Below, piece after piece: positions 35,074-41,822 of a DNA stretch of 64,000 bases. The DNA lies in assembly GCA_018830645.1 (NCBI GenBank), contig JAHJSA010000050.1:62001-126000 (forward strand), in the 5' to 3' direction. The DNA comes from Actinomycetota bacterium (lineage in GTDB: Bacteria > Actinomycetota > Thermoleophilia > RBG-16-64-13). The notes below the pieces were generated by a model. That model was given only the letters and a program-made list of their open reading frames with translations. It had not been told where the DNA came from and ran no database searches. The translations under genes and the position numbers were made by a program. The stretch's first letter is position 1, and the number at the start of each line of letters is the position of its first letter.

Positions 35074-36288
35074 ATGACCACCTTCACATACACGGCTAAG
35101 CCATCGGGCGGCAGCCTGATGGACGGCGAGATACAGGGGGATTCGAAAGCCGCGGTGGCCGCCGAGCTCAGGCGGCGCGGCCTAACCGTGATGTCCCTCG
35201 AGGAGAAGAAGGGCCTACCCAACATCGGCGAGCTGCTCGAGGGCATGAGCAGTATCAAGCTCCGCGACAAGGTCATCTTCTCTCGACAGTTCGCCACCAT
35301 GATCAACGCGGGTCTTGCGCTGCTCCGGGCGCTTTTTATCCTGGAAGAGCAGACGGAGAACCCGCGCCTCCAGAAGATCATCAAGGCCGTCCGCCAGGAT
35401 GTCGAGGCGGGTATGCCCCTCTCGGACTCCTTCGAGAAGCACCCGATCGCGTTCGACAGACTCTACGTCAGTATGGTCCGGGCCGGCGAAGTCGGAGGGG
35501 TACTCGACCTGACCCTCGAACGCCTAGCGACCCAACTCGAGAAAGACGACAGCCTCCGAAGATCGGTCAAGTCGGCCATGACGTACCCGATCCTCATCTT
35601 CGTCTTCGCGATCGTCGTGCTGTTCGCGCTCATCCTCTTCGTGATACCTGTGTTCGCCGGCATGTACGACGGATTGGGCGGTCAATTGCCGCTTCTCACC
35701 CGGATCATGGTGGGAGCAAGTGACTTTATGCGCTCGTTCTGGTTTGTCGTGTTCCCAGCCGCCTTCCTGCTCTTCTACGGGCTCAAGCGGCTCAAGAACA
35801 CCAAGACGGGCACCGAGACCTGGGACAAGATCAAGCTGCGCCTGCCCATGAAGCTGGGCCCGATCGTGCAGAAGATCGCCGTTTCCCGCTTCAGCCGGAC
35901 GCTGGCGACGCTGGTGAGTTCCGGTGTGCCGATCCTGCAGGCCATCGACATCACGGGAAAGACCTCGGGCAACACGGTCATAGAGTACGCGATGGAAGCG
36001 GTCAGAGAGAACATCAAGAGCGGAGATTCGATCTCACGCCCTCTCGAGAAGATAAAGGTGTTTCCACCGATGGTCACCCAGATGATCGCCATCGGGGAGG
36101 AGACGGGTGCTCTCGACACCATGCTCCACAAGATCGCCGACTTCTACGAGGATGAGGTCGATTCCGCGGTCAAGTCACTCACGTCGATCATCGAGCCGAT
36201 CATGATGATCTTCATCGGTGGCATCGTGGGCCTCGTCGTCGTCTCCATGTACCTGCCGATCTTCAACCTGTTCCAGTTGGTGGAGTAG
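35074..36288 (+). CDS. pilC: Type II secretion/type IV pilus inner-membrane platform protein PilC/GspF
   Basis: FSRQFATMINAGLALLRAL...SRFSRTLATLVSSGVPILQAIDITGKTSGN...QMIAIGEETGALDTML. Confidence 0.93.
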   Translation: MTTFTYTAKPSGGSLMDGEIQGDSKAAVAAELRRRGLTVMSLEEKKGLPNIGELLEGMSSIKLRDKVIFSRQFATMINAGLALLRALFILEEQTENPRLQKIIKAVRQDVEAGMPLSDSFEKHPIAFDRLYVSMVRAGEVGGVLDLTLERLATQLEKDDSLRRSVKSAMTYPILIFVFAIVVLFALILFVIPVFAGMYDGLGGQLPLLTRIMVGASDFMRSFWFVVFPAAFLLFYGLKRLKNTKTGTETWDKIKLRLPMKLGPIVQKIAVSRFSRTLATLVSSGVPILQAIDITGKTSGNTVIEYAMEAVRENIKSGDSISRPLEKIKVFPPMVTQMIAIGEETGALDTMLHKIADFYEDEVDSAVKSLTSIIEPIMMIFIGGIVGLVVVSMYLPIFNLFQLVE

Positions 36289-36328
36289 GCGCGAGCTATC
36301 CGACGCCGAAGGCGCACGGGCCGACTGG

Positions 36329-37183
36329 ATGTACATGTCTGGAGCTTCCAACGTGGAAGACGACATACGGGCAGCAGCCGCTTCTCTCGGGGTATCGGAT
36401 GGGAGAGCCGGTGCGCAGCCCACCGGCAACCTGCCGCGAACGTTCCCGGCCAACGAAGCCCTGCTGGCCGCGTACCGGCGCGGAGATTTGGGCGCGCTCG
36501 ATCGACTTCTCGAGAAGAACGAACCGTTGTTGCATCATGCTCTGAAGAGGTTCTCGTATTCCTCAGAGCCTTACGAGGACCTGTTCCAGGTCGCGCGCCT
36601 CGGCTTCATGAAAGCGGTCCACAGGTACGACGAGACCCGAGGCACCGCTTTCTCCACGTACGCTATCGCCATCGCCGACGGCGAGATCCGCCATCATCTT
36701 CGAGACGCCCTGTTGGTACGTCAACCGCGCTGGGCGCGAGGTCTCTACGCGCACATCGTCGAGGCGCAGACGGAGTTCTTCCGGGAGCACGGCCGCTCAC
36801 CGACAATCGCGGAGGTGGCAGCCCTCGTCAACATCCAGGAGAAGGGCGTTCTGGAGATCATCAGAGCGCAGGCGAACCTCAACGTGCATTCCCTGGACGA
36901 GCCCTTCGACGAGCCCGATGGTGGCCGAGCGCCCGACAGGACCTTGGTCCGATCCATCCGCGCCGAATCGTTCTCGCTGCCCATCGAGGACCGTATCCTG
37001 TTGTACGAAGCCCTGGGCGTACTCTCCGACCTCCAGAAGAAGATTATATACCTGCTGTTCTTCCGTGATCTGACGCAGCAAGAGGTCGCAGACGAGATCG
37101 GCCTCACCCAGCGCGCCGTATCACGCGAAAACGTGAAGGCCATGGACCGGCTGAAGGCGATCCTGAGCAAACGCGTCTTCTGA
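36329..37183 (+). CDS. Divergent SigB/F/G-like sigma factor downstream of pilC
   Basis: EDLFQVARLGFMKAVHRYDETRGTAFSTYAIAIADGEIRHHLRDALLVRQPRW...LTQQEVADEIGLTQRAVSRENVKAMDRLK. Start 36329 or 36335. Confidence 0.85.
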   Translation: MYMSGASNVEDDIRAAAASLGVSDGRAGAQPTGNLPRTFPANEALLAAYRRGDLGALDRLLEKNEPLLHHALKRFSYSSEPYEDLFQVARLGFMKAVHRYDETRGTAFSTYAIAIADGEIRHHLRDALLVRQPRWARGLYAHIVEAQTEFFREHGRSPTIAEVAALVNIQEKGVLEIIRAQANLNVHSLDEPFDEPDGGRAPDRTLVRSIRAESFSLPIEDRILLYEALGVLSDLQKKIIYLLFFRDLTQQEVADEIGLTQRAVSRENVKAMDRLKAILSKRVF

Positions 37184-37300: not shown

Positions 37301-37813
37301 TCAGTACCGGATCAGACTGAAGACGTCGTAGCCCTCGAGGCGGTCACGCCCCTTCAGGAACTCCAACTCGATGACAAAAGCCAGGCCGACCACTATGCCG
37401 CCTGACTTCTCCACCAGCTCGATCTTCGCTCTCGCGGTTCCTCCTGTGGCAAGAAGGTCATCGTGGATGATGACGCGCTGGCCGGGCGCTATCGCGTCCA
37501 CATGCATTTCGAGGCAGTCTACGCCGTACTCCAGGTCGTAGTCGGCGCGGGCCACGTCCCAGGGCAGCTTTCCCGGCTTTCGCGCCGCCGCGAAGCCAGC
37601 CCCCACCGCGTAGGCAAGTGCCGCGCCGAGGATGAACCCTCTGGCCTCCGCACCCAAGATCACATCAGGGGTCCGCTCCTTGCTGAAATCAGCGAGTCGC
37701 TCCACCGTATAGCGAAGCGCCTCAGCGTCTTGAAGGAGCGGCATTATGTCCTTGAAGATGATGCCCGCTTTCGGGAAATCGGGCACGTCTCGGATGAAGG
37801 TGCTTAAATCCAT
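37301..37813 (-). CDS. apt: Adenine phosphoribosyltransferase
   Basis: IRDVPDFPKAGIIFKDIMPLL, ILGAEARGFILGAALA, VIIHDDLLATGGTARAKIELV. Confidence 0.95.
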   Translation of the reverse strand: MDLSTFIRDVPDFPKAGIIFKDIMPLLQDAEALRYTVERLADFSKERTPDVILGAEARGFILGAALAYAVGAGFAAARKPGKLPWDVARADYDLEYGVDCLEMHVDAIAPGQRVIIHDDLLATGGTARAKIELVEKSGGIVVGLAFVIELEFLKGRDRLEGYDVFSLIRY

Positions 37814-37839
37814 GGGGCTCCTCGGGTCATCTTGGGAGG

Positions 37840-38592
37840 TCAGCCGGCAAGCCGCGAGAGTTCTCGGTACAGGAGCAGGTCGAGCAGACGAGCCATGAGC
37901 GAGCCGAGATCGGCCAGCGCCCGCGTCCCTTCCTCTCTCCTGTCCTTGTTCGCCGATCTCATCGCCGGCGCCACCACTTGTGCCAGCAACGCGGCCTCAC
38001 GTTCCGCCGACGAACTGAGGACACGCAGATTGCGAGGCTCGACCCCATGGCGGCTCAAGAGGTCGCAGATGCGCACCACCTCCAGGTCTGGTTCCGAGAG
38101 GCGCGTTTCGGTCATCGGCGTGGCTGCATCGAAGAGATGGAACTCGGCAAGAGCACGAAGAAACGACTCCGAAACTCCGGTGATGCTCAACGCCTGGTCC
38201 CACGTGTACGCGGGTACTCCTCGCTTGAGGCCGCGAGGCGTGTCGAAGGGTCCGGAGGGTGCCAAGGGTCGGCCGACCGCTGAAGCGGTGCCACGCTCGA
38301 GGCGCTCTTTGATCACATCGAGGGGCAAGAACTCGTCCCGCTGAAGAGTCAGGATAGTGCGCAGCGTTCGGACAGCCGCCTGGCCGTACTTTCGGTAGCC
38401 CCCCGGAGTGCGCTCCGGCGACACGAGGCCTCGATCCTCCAGATAACGGATCTTGCTGATGGTCAGGTCGGGGAACTCCCCGCGGAGGCGTGCCACCACT
38501 CCGCCGATCGCCAAGAGGGTCTCGGCCTGTCCCTCGAGAGCCCCCGCAGTCTCTCCGCCGGCCGTATCCTGACGCTGCGGGCGATCAGTCAT
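37840..38592 (-). CDS. MerR-family regulator, FtsR-like
   Basis: AIGGVVARLRGEFPDLTISKIRYLEDRGLVSPERTPGGYRKYGQAAVRTLRTILTLQRDEFLPLDVIKERL; directly downstream of a GarA-type FHA gene. Confidence 0.85.
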   Translation of the reverse strand: MTDRPQRQDTAGGETAGALEGQAETLLAIGGVVARLRGEFPDLTISKIRYLEDRGLVSPERTPGGYRKYGQAAVRTLRTILTLQRDEFLPLDVIKERLERGTASAVGRPLAPSGPFDTPRGLKRGVPAYTWDQALSITGVSESFLRALAEFHLFDAATPMTETRLSEPDLEVVRICDLLSRHGVEPRNLRVLSSSAEREAALLAQVVAPAMRSANKDRREEGTRALADLGSLMARLLDLLLYRELSRLAG

Positions 38593-39059
38593 CAGTCGAT
38601 CGGTTCCAGAAACGCCAGTTTGAACTTACCGATCTGCAGTTCATCGCCGTCGGCGAGGTGCTGGCGCTCGACTCTGCCCCGGTTGACATAGGTGCCGTTC
38701 AGGCTGTTCAGATCTTCGACCGCGTACCCGGTAGCATCGCGCACGACGCGGGCGTGATGACGAGAAACAGTGACATCGTCGAGGAACAGGTGGCTCTCCG
38801 GGTTGCGGCCGATGGTCAGGAGGTCGCTATCGAGGGGGATCTGCTCTCCCTCGCTACCCCCGCCCGCTCTGATCAGAAGAACAGGGTAGCGGCTCACCCC
38901 TCCGGAGACATCTGGGCCGGCTCCTGCCTCATCCCCATCGAGGGGCGCATACGTGACGGTGGTCTCGGCGAGGTCGGCGATGACCAAGCGGCTGCCACAA
39001 CGACTACAGAAGTTGGCGTCTCCGCTGTTCTCGAAGGAGCACTTGGCGCACGAGGTCAT
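38592..39059 (-). CDS. FHA-domain protein, GarA/OdhI-like, with N-terminal zinc ribbon
   Basis: CAKCSFENSGDANFCSRCG zinc ribbon; AETTVTY; LLTIGRNPESHLFLDDVTVSRHHARV...LNSLNGTYVNRGRV...ADGDELQIGKFKLAFL. Confidence 0.9.
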   Translation of the reverse strand: MTSCAKCSFENSGDANFCSRCGSRLVIADLAETTVTYAPLDGDEAGAGPDVSGGVSRYPVLLIRAGGGSEGEQIPLDSDLLTIGRNPESHLFLDDVTVSRHHARVVRDATGYAVEDLNSLNGTYVNRGRVERQHLADGDELQIGKFKLAFLEPID

Positions 39060-39346
39060 GCCTCGTCCTCTTCTGTGTGGGCGAGCTGCCTCTGGTAGTG
39101 GGTGAATTCGGCCGCCATCTGATCCTCGATGCCTCGCAGTACTTCCGGGCTCTCCAGGATATGCGCGCGGTCCTCAGCATCTGTGTTGTTGATAATGTAT
39201 GGGTCGGCCATCACCTGATCGAACCTCCGACCCTTGCTCAGTTCCGTCACGATGTACCGGAGGATCCTCTCCTCGCGCACACCGACGGAGAGTTCGTGGA
39301 AGAGCCTCTCCATACCCCTTACGACTCGGTCGATCCTATCCCCCAT
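39056..39346 (-). CDS. Conserved-looking 96-aa protein of unknown function between the RsiG-like and FHA genes
   Basis: 4-bp overlap with the FHA gene; REERILRYIVTELSKGRRFDQVMADPYIINNTDAEDRAHILESPEVLRGIEDQM. Confidence 0.7.
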   Translation of the reverse strand: MGDRIDRVVRGMERLFHELSVGVREERILRYIVTELSKGRRFDQVMADPYIINNTDAEDRAHILESPEVLRGIEDQMAAEFTHYQRQLAHTEEDEA

Positions 39347-39361
39347 GGGACCACCTCCGCC

Positions 39362-39640
39362 TCAGAGCTCTTCTTCGGCCAACCCGCGGGAGCTGAGGAT
39401 GCTGCTGAGCTTCTCGACGTCGCCCTCGACGAAGAGACTCTTGCCGCTCGAATGCTTGTCTCTCAGCCGACGAACCATCTCTGCGCGAAGGATGTCGAGC
39501 TTCGCGTGGATGATCCGGCGGGTCTTGGAGACCTCTCGCTCCTCTGCCGCCAGTTGCTCGGCGAGTACCTTGATCTCGTCATCGCCCTTCGACTGTATGT
39601 CGATGAGCAGTTCGAACGATGAGGTGTCGTAGTCGTTCAT
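39362..39640 (-). CDS. RsiG-like ('aerial mycelium formation protein' type) small coiled-coil protein, putative c-di-GMP-dependent anti-sigma
   Basis: EREVSKTRRIIHAKLDILRAEMVRRL matches E(X)3S(X)2R(X)3[Q->H](X)3D. Confidence 0.7.
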   Translation of the reverse strand: MNDYDTSSFELLIDIQSKGDDEIKVLAEQLAAEEREVSKTRRIIHAKLDILRAEMVRRLRDKHSSGKSLFVEGDVEKLSSILSSRGLAEEEL

Positions 39641-39647
39641 GGCTTCT

Positions 39648-39676
39648 AGTATACCCCCGTGGCTACGAACCATCAA
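39648..39676 (-). promoter_or_regulatory. Leaderless-type sigma70-like promoter of the RsiG-like gene
   Basis: Minus strand TTGATG-N17-TATACT-N7-ATG; -35 overlaps inverted repeat CAACCT-N7-AGGTTG (39674-39692). Confidence 0.65.
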
Positions 39677-39716
39677 CCTTGACTAGAGGTTGGCGACCAC
39701 CGCCTCCCCCAAGATC

Positions 39717-39743
39717 AAGGGCAGGCACCACGCGCCTGCCCTT
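39717..39743 (-). terminator. Hairpin terminator downstream of gcvH
   Basis: AAGGGCAGGC-accacgc-GCCTGCCCTT perfect 10-bp stem. Confidence 0.6.
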
Positions 39744-39784
39744 CGTGCTACATGGTCTGTCCTACCGTACGGACGGCTGCAGGT

Positions 39785-40171
39785 TCACTCGTCCTGCTCT
39801 GCGAGGATCTGCTCGTATTCCTCGGCCGACATGAGTTCCTCGAGTTCGCTCGGGTCGCTCAGCTTGATCTTGATGAGCCAACCGTCTTCGTAGGGGCTCT
39901 CGTTGATCAACTCGGGAGCATCCACGACTTCCTCGTTAGTCTCGACGATCGTGCCGCTCAGCGGAGCGTAGACATCGGTCACCGCCTTCACCGATTCGAT
40001 CTCGGCATACGTAGTACCGGCGGCGACTTCCGTGCCTACCTCGGGAAGCTCGATGTAGACGATGTCGCCGAGGGCCTCCTGGGCGTAATCGGTCACACCG
40101 AGTACAGCGATGTCACCCTCGATACGGGCCCAATCATGCTCCTTGTGGTACTTGAGGTTCTTGGGGTTCAC
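39785..40171 (-). CDS. gcvH: Glycine cleavage system H protein (lipoyl carrier)
   Basis: YHKEHDWARIEGDIAVLGVTDYAQEALGDIVYIELPEVG...ESVKAVTDVYAPLSGTIVETNEEV (lipoyl-Lys motif). Confidence 0.96.
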   Translation of the reverse strand: MNPKNLKYHKEHDWARIEGDIAVLGVTDYAQEALGDIVYIELPEVGTEVAAGTTYAEIESVKAVTDVYAPLSGTIVETNEEVVDAPELINESPYEDGWLIKIKLSDPSELEELMSAEEYEQILAEQDE

Positions 40172-40252
40172 TAGCGCTCCTTTCTCGCCAAGCGTGGCTG
40201 GCCACATGATAGCACAGGCTTCCCGGCCTCCCGCCCATCGAACCGGCGCTAC

Positions 40253-40588
40253 TCAACTCGCCTGCGGCGCGTCGCTCAGACTCTCTAGAAGCAGGCTGTC
40301 GAGAGTCCGATCTATGGTCACTGGAGACGTGATGGCAGTGAACTCGACGCTCTCGAAGGCGAAGTGACCTTCCTTGAGTGCGATGAGACCCCAGAAGGCC
40401 TCAAGGGCGGATTCAGCCCCTACCTGCTCGGCGTGGATGACTCGTCCCCGAGCTATGACGATCATGCCCTCGATATCGGTGTGATCGACTGAGCAGCGGA
40501 GCTCTACTTCTCCCGTCCTCTTCCCATGCACGAGCACCTGCAGGATCTCAGGAAGAGCGAAGTCCCTCAGGTCGCCGACAAAAGCCAT
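40253..40588 (-). CDS. DUF4388-domain protein
   Basis: MAFVGDLRDFALPEILQVLVHGKRTGEVELRC...IVIARGRVIHAEQVGAESALEAFWGLIALKEGHFAFE. Confidence 0.75.
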   Translation of the reverse strand: MAFVGDLRDFALPEILQVLVHGKRTGEVELRCSVDHTDIEGMIVIARGRVIHAEQVGAESALEAFWGLIALKEGHFAFESVEFTAITSPVTIDRTLDSLLLESLSDAPQAS

Positions 40589-40673
40589 CGCCCTCCTATG
40601 CCTCGTCATCCAACGTCGGTCGCGGGGGATTCTACCAACGCGGACCCGCATAGCAAAGGCTACAGGGCCTTGT

Positions 40674-40679
40674 TATACT
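40674..40679 (+). promoter_or_regulatory. Putative -10 box upstream of the Roadblock/mglA pair
   Basis: TATACT about 57 nt upstream of the TTG start; no clear -35. Confidence 0.35.
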
Positions 40680-40735
40680 TCTGCCCGTGCTTCCAGCCGC
40701 AACCTAGCGGCCCACATGTGCACAAGGAGGTGCTC

Positions 40736-41230
40736 TTGGTTCGCCGCAGGGGGCTGGTAATCAACGATCGGCAGATGCAGCTCGTGGATGACATCCTCGA
40801 TAAGCTGCGCCAGGTTTCGGGGTCGCGCTTCATCGCCCTGGTCTCCACGAGCGGCCAACCCATCACGACATCGTCAGTGGAAGCTCACCCTGACACCCTG
40901 TCCCTCGCCTCCTTGGCCGCCAGTTCGTTCGCTGCGACTCAGCAGCTCGCAGAGGTGCTGCACGAGCGGGAGTTCACCCTGCTGTTCCACGAAGGCCGCG
41001 AGAGCAATTTGCACGTGGCGCAGGTCACGGACCAAGTCTTGCTTGTGATCACGTTCGGACGTGAGACCCAGGTGGGCAAGGTGCGGCTCTACACGAACCG
41101 AGCGGTAGAGGTACTCCGCCCTGTGTTCGATTCGAACGATGGCGACGACCAGACCAACCTCATGATAGACGACGACTACTCGCTGCTCGCGGACGAGGCC
41201 ATAGACGACCTCTTCGCGGACATGGAGTGA
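40736..41230 (+). CDS. Roadblock/LC7-domain protein, MglB-like
   Basis: TTG start with AAGGAGG RBS; INDRQMQLVDDILDKLRQVSGSRFIALVSTSGQPITTSSVE...SLAALAASSFAATQQLAEVL-type Roadblock pattern; adjacent to mglA. Confidence 0.85.
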   Translation: MVRRRGLVINDRQMQLVDDILDKLRQVSGSRFIALVSTSGQPITTSSVEAHPDTLSLASLAASSFAATQQLAEVLHEREFTLLFHEGRESNLHVAQVTDQVLLVITFGRETQVGKVRLYTNRAVEVLRPVFDSNDGDDQTNLMIDDDYSLLADEAIDDLFADME

Positions 41231-41234
41231 CCTC

Positions 41235-41822
41235 GTGCCTCTGATCAACTTCGCCGCACGCGAGATCAACTACAAGATCGTCTACTATGGGTGCGGTCTA
41301 TGCGGCAAGACCACGAACATCCAGTACATCCACAAGAAGGTGAACCCGAACGCCCGCGGCAAGCTGGTCAGTATCGCGACCGAGGAGGAGCGCACCCTCT
41401 ACTTCGACTTCCTCCCACTTACCCTGGGAACAGTCAAGGGCATGAAGACTCGCTTCCACCTCTATACCGTCCCGGGCCAGTCGTACTACAACGCGTCCCG
41501 CCGACTCGTGTTGCAGGGAGTCGATGGCATCGTGATGGTCGCCGACAGCCAGATCACTCGCCTGGACGAGAACGTCGAGAGCTATCTGAACCTCTGGGAT
41601 AACCTCCTCGACCAAGGCGACGACTTGACCCGCCTAAGTTTCGTGATCCAACTGAACAAGCGCGATCTCACGGACATCTTCTCGGCCGAGGATCTCAAGG
41701 AGCTCCTGAACCACACGAACTCGCCCGTGACGGAAGCGTGCGCGCTCACCGGCCAAGGAGTCTTCGAGACCCTCAAGACCGTGTGCAAGCAGGTCATCGC
41801 CAAGACCGGTCAGGCCTCCTAG
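41235..41822 (+). CDS. mglA: MglA-family small Ras-like GTPase
   Basis: PLINFAAREINYKIVYYGCGLCGKTTNIQYIHKK...ERTLYFDFLPLTLGTVKGMKTRFHLYTVPGQSYYNASRRLVLQGVDGIVMVADSQ...NKRDL. Confidence 0.95.
   Translation: MPLINFAAREINYKIVYYGCGLCGKTTNIQYIHKKVNPNARGKLVSIATEEERTLYFDFLPLTLGTVKGMKTRFHLYTVPGQSYYNASRRLVLQGVDGIVMVADSQITRLDENVESYLNLWDNLLDQGDDLTRLSFVIQLNKRDLTDIFSAEDLKELLNHTNSPVTEACALTGQGVFETLKTVCKQVIAKTGQAS

What the first reader, a model, noticed from the sequence alone, without database searches (positions are those of the whole stretch)
39362..39640. Single-motif RsiG-like protein with a variant c-di-GMP-binding signature
EREVSKTRRIIHAKLD (39494-39541) matches the RsiG motif E(X)3S(X)2R(X)3Q(X)3D at every key position except Q->H. 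RsiG is the c-di-GMP-armed anti-sigma of WhiG. Single-motif RsiGs in deep-branching actinobacteria act as homodimers, and in Rubrobacter radiotolerans control type IV pili. Here the gene lies ~2.2 kb from a pilus-linked sigma gene that is SigB/F/G-like rather than WhiG/FliA-like. That would imply a different sigma partner or an expansion of this switch.
Basis: partly seen in the sequence, partly recalled or inferred. Interest (0 to 1): 0.7.

Follow-up and report, generated by a model that had tools for sequence, protein, structure and literature searches.

The report
Ordinary single-motif RsiG anti-sigma gene
This small gene is a normal member of a known family of anti-sigma proteins that use the signal molecule c-di-GMP to hold back the sigma factor WhiG, and the genome carries the expected WhiG elsewhere, so the neighbouring sigma gene is probably not its partner.

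Summary
The ORF at 39362-39640 (-, 92 aa) is coding and scores 49.3 bits against Pfam PF22802 RsiG (cut-off 27). The motif lies exactly at 39494-39541. The genome is a Thermoleophilia actinobacterium, one of the two classes in which single-motif RsiG was described in 2021. The Q->H change is not a special signature: H stands there in 110 of 115 motif matches found here, and Conexibacter woesei RsiG, which has H, is published to bind c-di-GMP.

The proposed new sigma partner is not supported. The genome holds a bona fide WhiG (271 bits, cut-off 189.6) in a dprA-integrase-whiG-rpsB locus, with all three sigma2 residues that touch c-di-GMP (K/G/R). The sigmas at 36.3 and 26.2 kb lack K and G. The 36.3-kb sigma is found in 8 of 18 genomes of its family; RsiG in 17 of 18. 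RsiG and WhiG co-occur across 199 class genomes (148 both, 36 neither, 15 discordant). The conserved neighbours of rsiG are a GarA/OdhI-like FHA gene and ftsR, not the sigma gene. c-di-GMP and WhiG binding are inferred, not tested. Verdict: new member of a known kind.

The parts
39362..39640 (-). rsiG: single-motif RsiG-family c-di-GMP-dependent anti-sigma factor, 92 aa
   Evidence: PF22802 49.3 bits, cut-off 27; PDB RsiG matches; codon-level conservation
39494..39541 (-). c-di-GMP-binding motif E(X)3S(X)2R(X)3H(X)3D (E34, S38, R41, H45, D49)
   Evidence: Sequence; E34, S38, R41, D49 invariant and H45 at least 90% in 50 relatives
39785..40207 (-). gcvH-like gene upstream of rsiG in the same direction (named by reading, not run against Pfam)
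   Evidence: Same gene precedes rsiG in nearly all loci of the family
39056..39346 (-). 96-aa conserved protein of unknown function between rsiG and the FHA gene
   Evidence: No family match at a credible score; conserved in part of the family and a few other loci
38592..39059 (-). FHA-domain protein of the OdhI/GarA type with an N-terminal zinc-ribbon-like segment
   Evidence: PF00498 69 bits; NF041660 OdhI 106.8 bits, below its cut-off of 200
37840..38592 (-). ftsR: MerR-family regulator
   Evidence: NF050798 FtsR 197 bits, cut-off 150
37301..37813 (-). apt-like (phosphoribosyltransferase) gene downstream of ftsR
   Evidence: Position conserved in most loci; name from reading, not run against Pfam
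36218..37183 (+). SigB/F/G-like sigma gene next to pilC (ORF as listed; the true start is probably nearer 36329); judged NOT to be part of the switch
   Evidence: TIGR02980 176 bits, below cut-off 234; lacks K and G of the WhiG c-di-GMP contacts; in 8 of 18 family genomes

Best explanation
The gene encodes an orthologue of the known single-motif RsiG. By homology, two copies form an antiparallel coiled coil; each helix supplies one E-S-R-H-D motif; together they bind a c-di-GMP dimer. Only then can the dimer grip the sigma2 and sigma4 domains of WhiG and keep it off RNA polymerase. When c-di-GMP falls, WhiG is released and transcribes its regulon. The partner is the WhiG encoded in the dprA-whiG-rpsB locus on another contig (C89), not the SigB/F/G-like sigma near pilC. 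Shown here: family membership, an intact motif, a cognate-type WhiG with the c-di-GMP contact residues, 16 GGDEF matches in the genome, and RsiG/WhiG co-occurrence. Inferred: dimerisation, c-di-GMP binding, WhiG binding. Not determined: what WhiG controls in this organism.
For: PF22802 49.3 bits; only one RsiG in the genome. Bona fide WhiG: TIGR02479 271 bits, cut-off 189.6, 6pfj WhiG at 1.9e-87, flanked by an integrase-family recombinase gene (xerC type), dprA and rpsB. KYVAGR holds the three contacts K57/G61/R62 of S. venezuelae WhiG, conserved in the WhiGs of relatives with a single K/G/K exception and in R. radiotolerans WhiG. RsiG and WhiG co-occur over 199 class genomes: 148 both, 8 RsiG only, 7 WhiG only, 36 neither, with joint absence in 10 genera. 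H at the Q position in 110 of 115 motif matches, with published binding for an H-type RsiG. 16 GGDEF matches.
Against: No biochemistry was possible. Fifteen genomes hold one partner without the other, some of them incomplete. Several family RsiGs have N at position 14, where Rubrobacter has D39, which forms a salt bridge to WhiG (this protein has D). The flagellar/WhiG promoter consensus is not enriched in this genome, so no regulon could be read.
Confidence: 0.9

Rival explanations
1. The protein is a c-di-GMP-dependent anti-sigma of the nearby SigB/F/G-like sigma at 36.3 kb, alone or besides WhiG.
For: The two genes lie about 2.2 kb apart here and close together in several relatives of the same family.
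Against: The sigma lacks K and G of the K/G/R contacts (HHALKR in place of KYVAGR). It is undetected in ten of 18 family genomes while RsiG is in 17 of 18. The gene is on the other strand with other genes between. The genome has a proper WhiG.
Confidence: 0.03
2. The protein still belongs to the RsiG fold but has lost c-di-GMP control (H variant) and acts constitutively or not at all.
For: The motif departs from Q; A46 replaces the usual G, and K39 the usual Y, next to motif residues.
Against: H is the class norm and the H-bearing C. woesei protein binds c-di-GMP. E34, S38, R41 and D49 are invariant in 50 relatives. The gene is under protein-level selection.
Confidence: 0.05
3. The protein works mainly with its operon neighbours (GarA/OdhI-like FHA protein, FtsR), coupling c-di-GMP to 2-oxoglutarate metabolism or cell division, and WhiG binding is secondary.
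For: rsiG-FHA-ftsR order is kept in nearly all 80 named loci and in another single-motif family.
Against: Operon sharing alone proves no physical link. RsiG tends to be absent together with WhiG; whether the FHA-ftsR pair stays in those genomes was not tested.
Confidence: 0.02

Closest known systems
Single-motif RsiG of Conexibacter woesei / Thermoleophilia (PNAS 2021, PMC8325347)
   Same: Same class, similar size, one motif, H at the Q position; cognate WhiG in the genome
   Different: About 50% identical to the Conexibacter RsiGs fetched here (C. woesei itself was not fetched); this protein has an N-terminal extension of about 8 residues and has not been tested
Single-motif RsiG of Rubrobacter radiotolerans (PDB 7lq2, 7lq3, 7lq4)
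   Same: One motif, D at the position of Rr D39 (D14 here), C-terminal region after the coiled coil
   Different: Rr has Q; this protein has H. In Rr the switch is reported to control type IV pilus genes; no such promoters were found here
Twin-motif RsiG of Streptomyces (6pfj)
   Same: Same helix and motif
   Different: Streptomyces RsiG carries two motifs in one chain; the Streptomyces-like genes fetched here are not linked to FHA-ftsR

Membership tests
RsiG (PF22802) | Profile score above the curated cut-off | tested here: met
   49.3 bits against a cut-off of 27
RsiG (PF22802) | E(X)3S(X)2R(X)3[Q/H](X)3D motif | tested here: met
   EREVSKTRRIIHAKLD; H is accepted in the published family
RsiG, single-motif type | One motif in a chain of about 80-110 aa | tested here: met
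   One motif, 92 aa
RsiG | A WhiG encoded in the same genome | tested here: met
   C89:29479-30156, 271 bits over TIGR02479 cut-off, K/G/R contacts present
RsiG | Binds c-di-GMP | not testable with these tools
   Biochemistry needed
RsiG, single-motif type | Antiparallel homodimeric coiled coil | not tested
RsiG | Holds WhiG off RNA polymerase in a c-di-GMP-dependent way | not testable with these tools
   Two-hybrid, pull-down or transcription assay needed
WhiG/FliA sigma (for the 36.3-kb sigma) | TIGR02479 score above 189.6 and K/G/R contacts in sigma2 | tested here: not met
   80.6 bits; HHALKR in place of KYVAGR

The most novel reading that the evidence does not exclude
The RsiG dimer serves a second sigma factor in this family, the SigB/F/G-like one beside pilC, besides WhiG, so that one c-di-GMP-armed anti-sigma controls two sigma classes.
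Probability: 0.03. Interest if true: 0.65.

Novelty: new member of a known kind. Interest (0 to 1): 0.22.

Why it matters
In itself it adds one more uncultured Thermoleophilia genome to the known RsiG-WhiG switch. The surrounding survey is of some use: single-motif RsiG is widespread in the class (156 of 199 genomes have an RsiG match), H is the usual residue there, rsiG has a fixed home beside the GarA/OdhI-like FHA gene and ftsR, and twin-motif RsiGs seem to have arisen again inside this class.

Tried and rejected
Viral contigs: no relative found. WhiG/flagellar promoter consensus TAAA-N15-GCCGATAA: no match in the window at up to 2 mismatches, one chance-level match with N16; in the whole genome 1 match at up to 1 mismatch against 2 for the reversed control and 30 against 33 at up to 2. 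So no regulon was proposed. The sigma2 fragment sent was typed with small errors at its first residues; the exact sequence is aligned. The idea that sigma proximity marks a partner was dropped.

Full report
What is there. The ORF at 39362-39640 on the minus strand starts at ATG 39640 and encodes 92 aa. Pfam PF22802 (RsiG) matches at 49.3 bits against a curated cut-off of 27, and phmmer finds the solved RsiG chains of Streptomyces and Rubrobacter. Compared with the closest relative, L069, 26 codons differ synonymously and 8 non-synonymously, with 29 of 38 base changes at third positions.

Where it comes from. The genome has 3.87 Mb in 112 contigs. The nearest named loci are MAGs labelled Actinomycetes or Thermoleophilia bacterium, followed by Gaiellales, Solirubrobacterales and Conexibacter. 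The class is therefore Thermoleophilia, judged from these titles. RsiG is found in 156 of 199 genomes drawn from the class. Thermoleophilia and Rubrobacteria are the two classes in which single-motif RsiG was described (PMC8325347).

The H is not a new signature. In the loci collected here the Q position holds H in 110 of 115 motif matches, Q in 4, and one match is a chance hit. The 2021 paper states that H often replaces Q, that H can stack on guanine in the same way, and that the H-bearing C. woesei protein binds c-di-GMP with a Kd of 25 uM, or 1.7 uM with WhiG. E34, S38, R41, R42 and D49 are invariant in 50 aligned relatives.

The partner. The genome has one WhiG over the TIGR02479 cut-off, at C89:29479-30156, 271 bits. 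Its neighbours are an integrase-family recombinase (xerC type), dprA and rpsB, and it aligns to Streptomyces WhiG at 1.9e-87. The three sigma2 residues that touch c-di-GMP in the solved complexes (K57, G61, R62 in S. venezuelae) are all present as KYVAGR. They are kept in the WhiGs of the relatives examined, apart from one K/G/K; none of the other sigma factors aligned shares the K and G. The sigma at 36.3 kb reads HHALKR and the one at 26.2 kb RSLARR. The 36.3-kb sigma is best matched by SigB/F/G, below the cut-off, and is detected in only 8 of 18 genomes of its own family, whereas RsiG is in 17 of the 18. One search used a strict threshold (1e-30), and one genome counted as lacking the sigma (G034) holds a fragment of it at a contig end (L052). 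Linkage between rsiG and this sigma is therefore a local feature.

Co-occurrence. Over the 199 class genomes, 148 have both RsiG and a WhiG over cut-off, 36 have neither, 8 have RsiG only and 7 have WhiG only (counted, where presence lists were entered by hand from the two tables). Neither is found in genomes of 10 different genera. Fisher's test gives 8e-25, but relatedness is not corrected for, so the number of genera is the safer measure.

Neighbourhood. In the window the order on the minus strand is gcvH-like, rsiG, a 96-aa unknown, an FHA gene of the OdhI/GarA type, ftsR, and apt-like. The rsiG-FHA-ftsR order recurs in the families sampled, in nearly all of the 80 named loci and in another family with mostly Q-type single-motif RsiG; it is not seen around Streptomyces-like twin-motif genes. 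The FtsR paper reports that odhI/garA-ftsR is conserved in actinobacteria and that the region upstream of odhI varies (PMC6683498). The RsiG paper's main text does not contain the words FHA, GarA or gcvH. Among the loci with flanks, pilT and pilC homologues lie nearby only in the window's own family.

Mechanism. By homology the protein should form an antiparallel homodimer, bind a c-di-GMP dimer with two motifs and then sequester WhiG. The genome has 16 GGDEF matches, so c-di-GMP is very likely made. The regulon is unknown: the flagellar/WhiG promoter consensus is at control level in the genome and absent near the pilus genes. Whether pili are under this switch here cannot be said.

Limits. 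Confidence in family membership is very high; in the WhiG partnership high; in the regulon none.

Noticed in passing
L041 1459-2025, L143 7218-7781, L227, and L223, L224, L225, L226: Twin-motif RsiGs inside Thermoleophilia. In L223, L224, L226 and L227, as in L041 and L143, they sit at the rsiG-FHA-ftsR locus (L225 is cut short). In L041, L143 and L227 the two halves are about 64-69% identical to each other and each is closest to single-motif RsiGs of the same class, not to Streptomyces halves. The second group (L223-L226) resembles single-motif RsiGs of another family. This suggests one or two fusions separate from the Streptomyces one; no tree was built.
   Followed up: partly
window 37301-40207; L069-L148; L208, L211, L212, L215, L218, L219, L221: rsiG has a fixed place upstream of a GarA/OdhI-like FHA gene and ftsR across Thermoleophilia and in another single-motif family; not mentioned in the two papers consulted.
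   Followed up: partly
L091, L108, L114: Single-motif RsiG in MAGs labelled Coriobacteriia, a class not named in the 2021 paper's main text; L108's genome has a WhiG over cut-off, L091's and L114's have only matches below it, some cut by contig ends. Labels not verified.
   Followed up: no
window 39056-39346: A 96-aa protein without a family match, conserved between rsiG and the FHA gene in part of the family and in a few other loci.
   Followed up: no
window 40253-41822: DUF4388, Roadblock-like and MglA-like GTPase genes next to the rsiG operon, a set often tied to polarity or pilus motility (own knowledge); kept in several families.
   Followed up: no
L126: A record titled Bifidobacterium breve groups with Thermoleophilia loci; probably mislabelled.
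   Followed up: no
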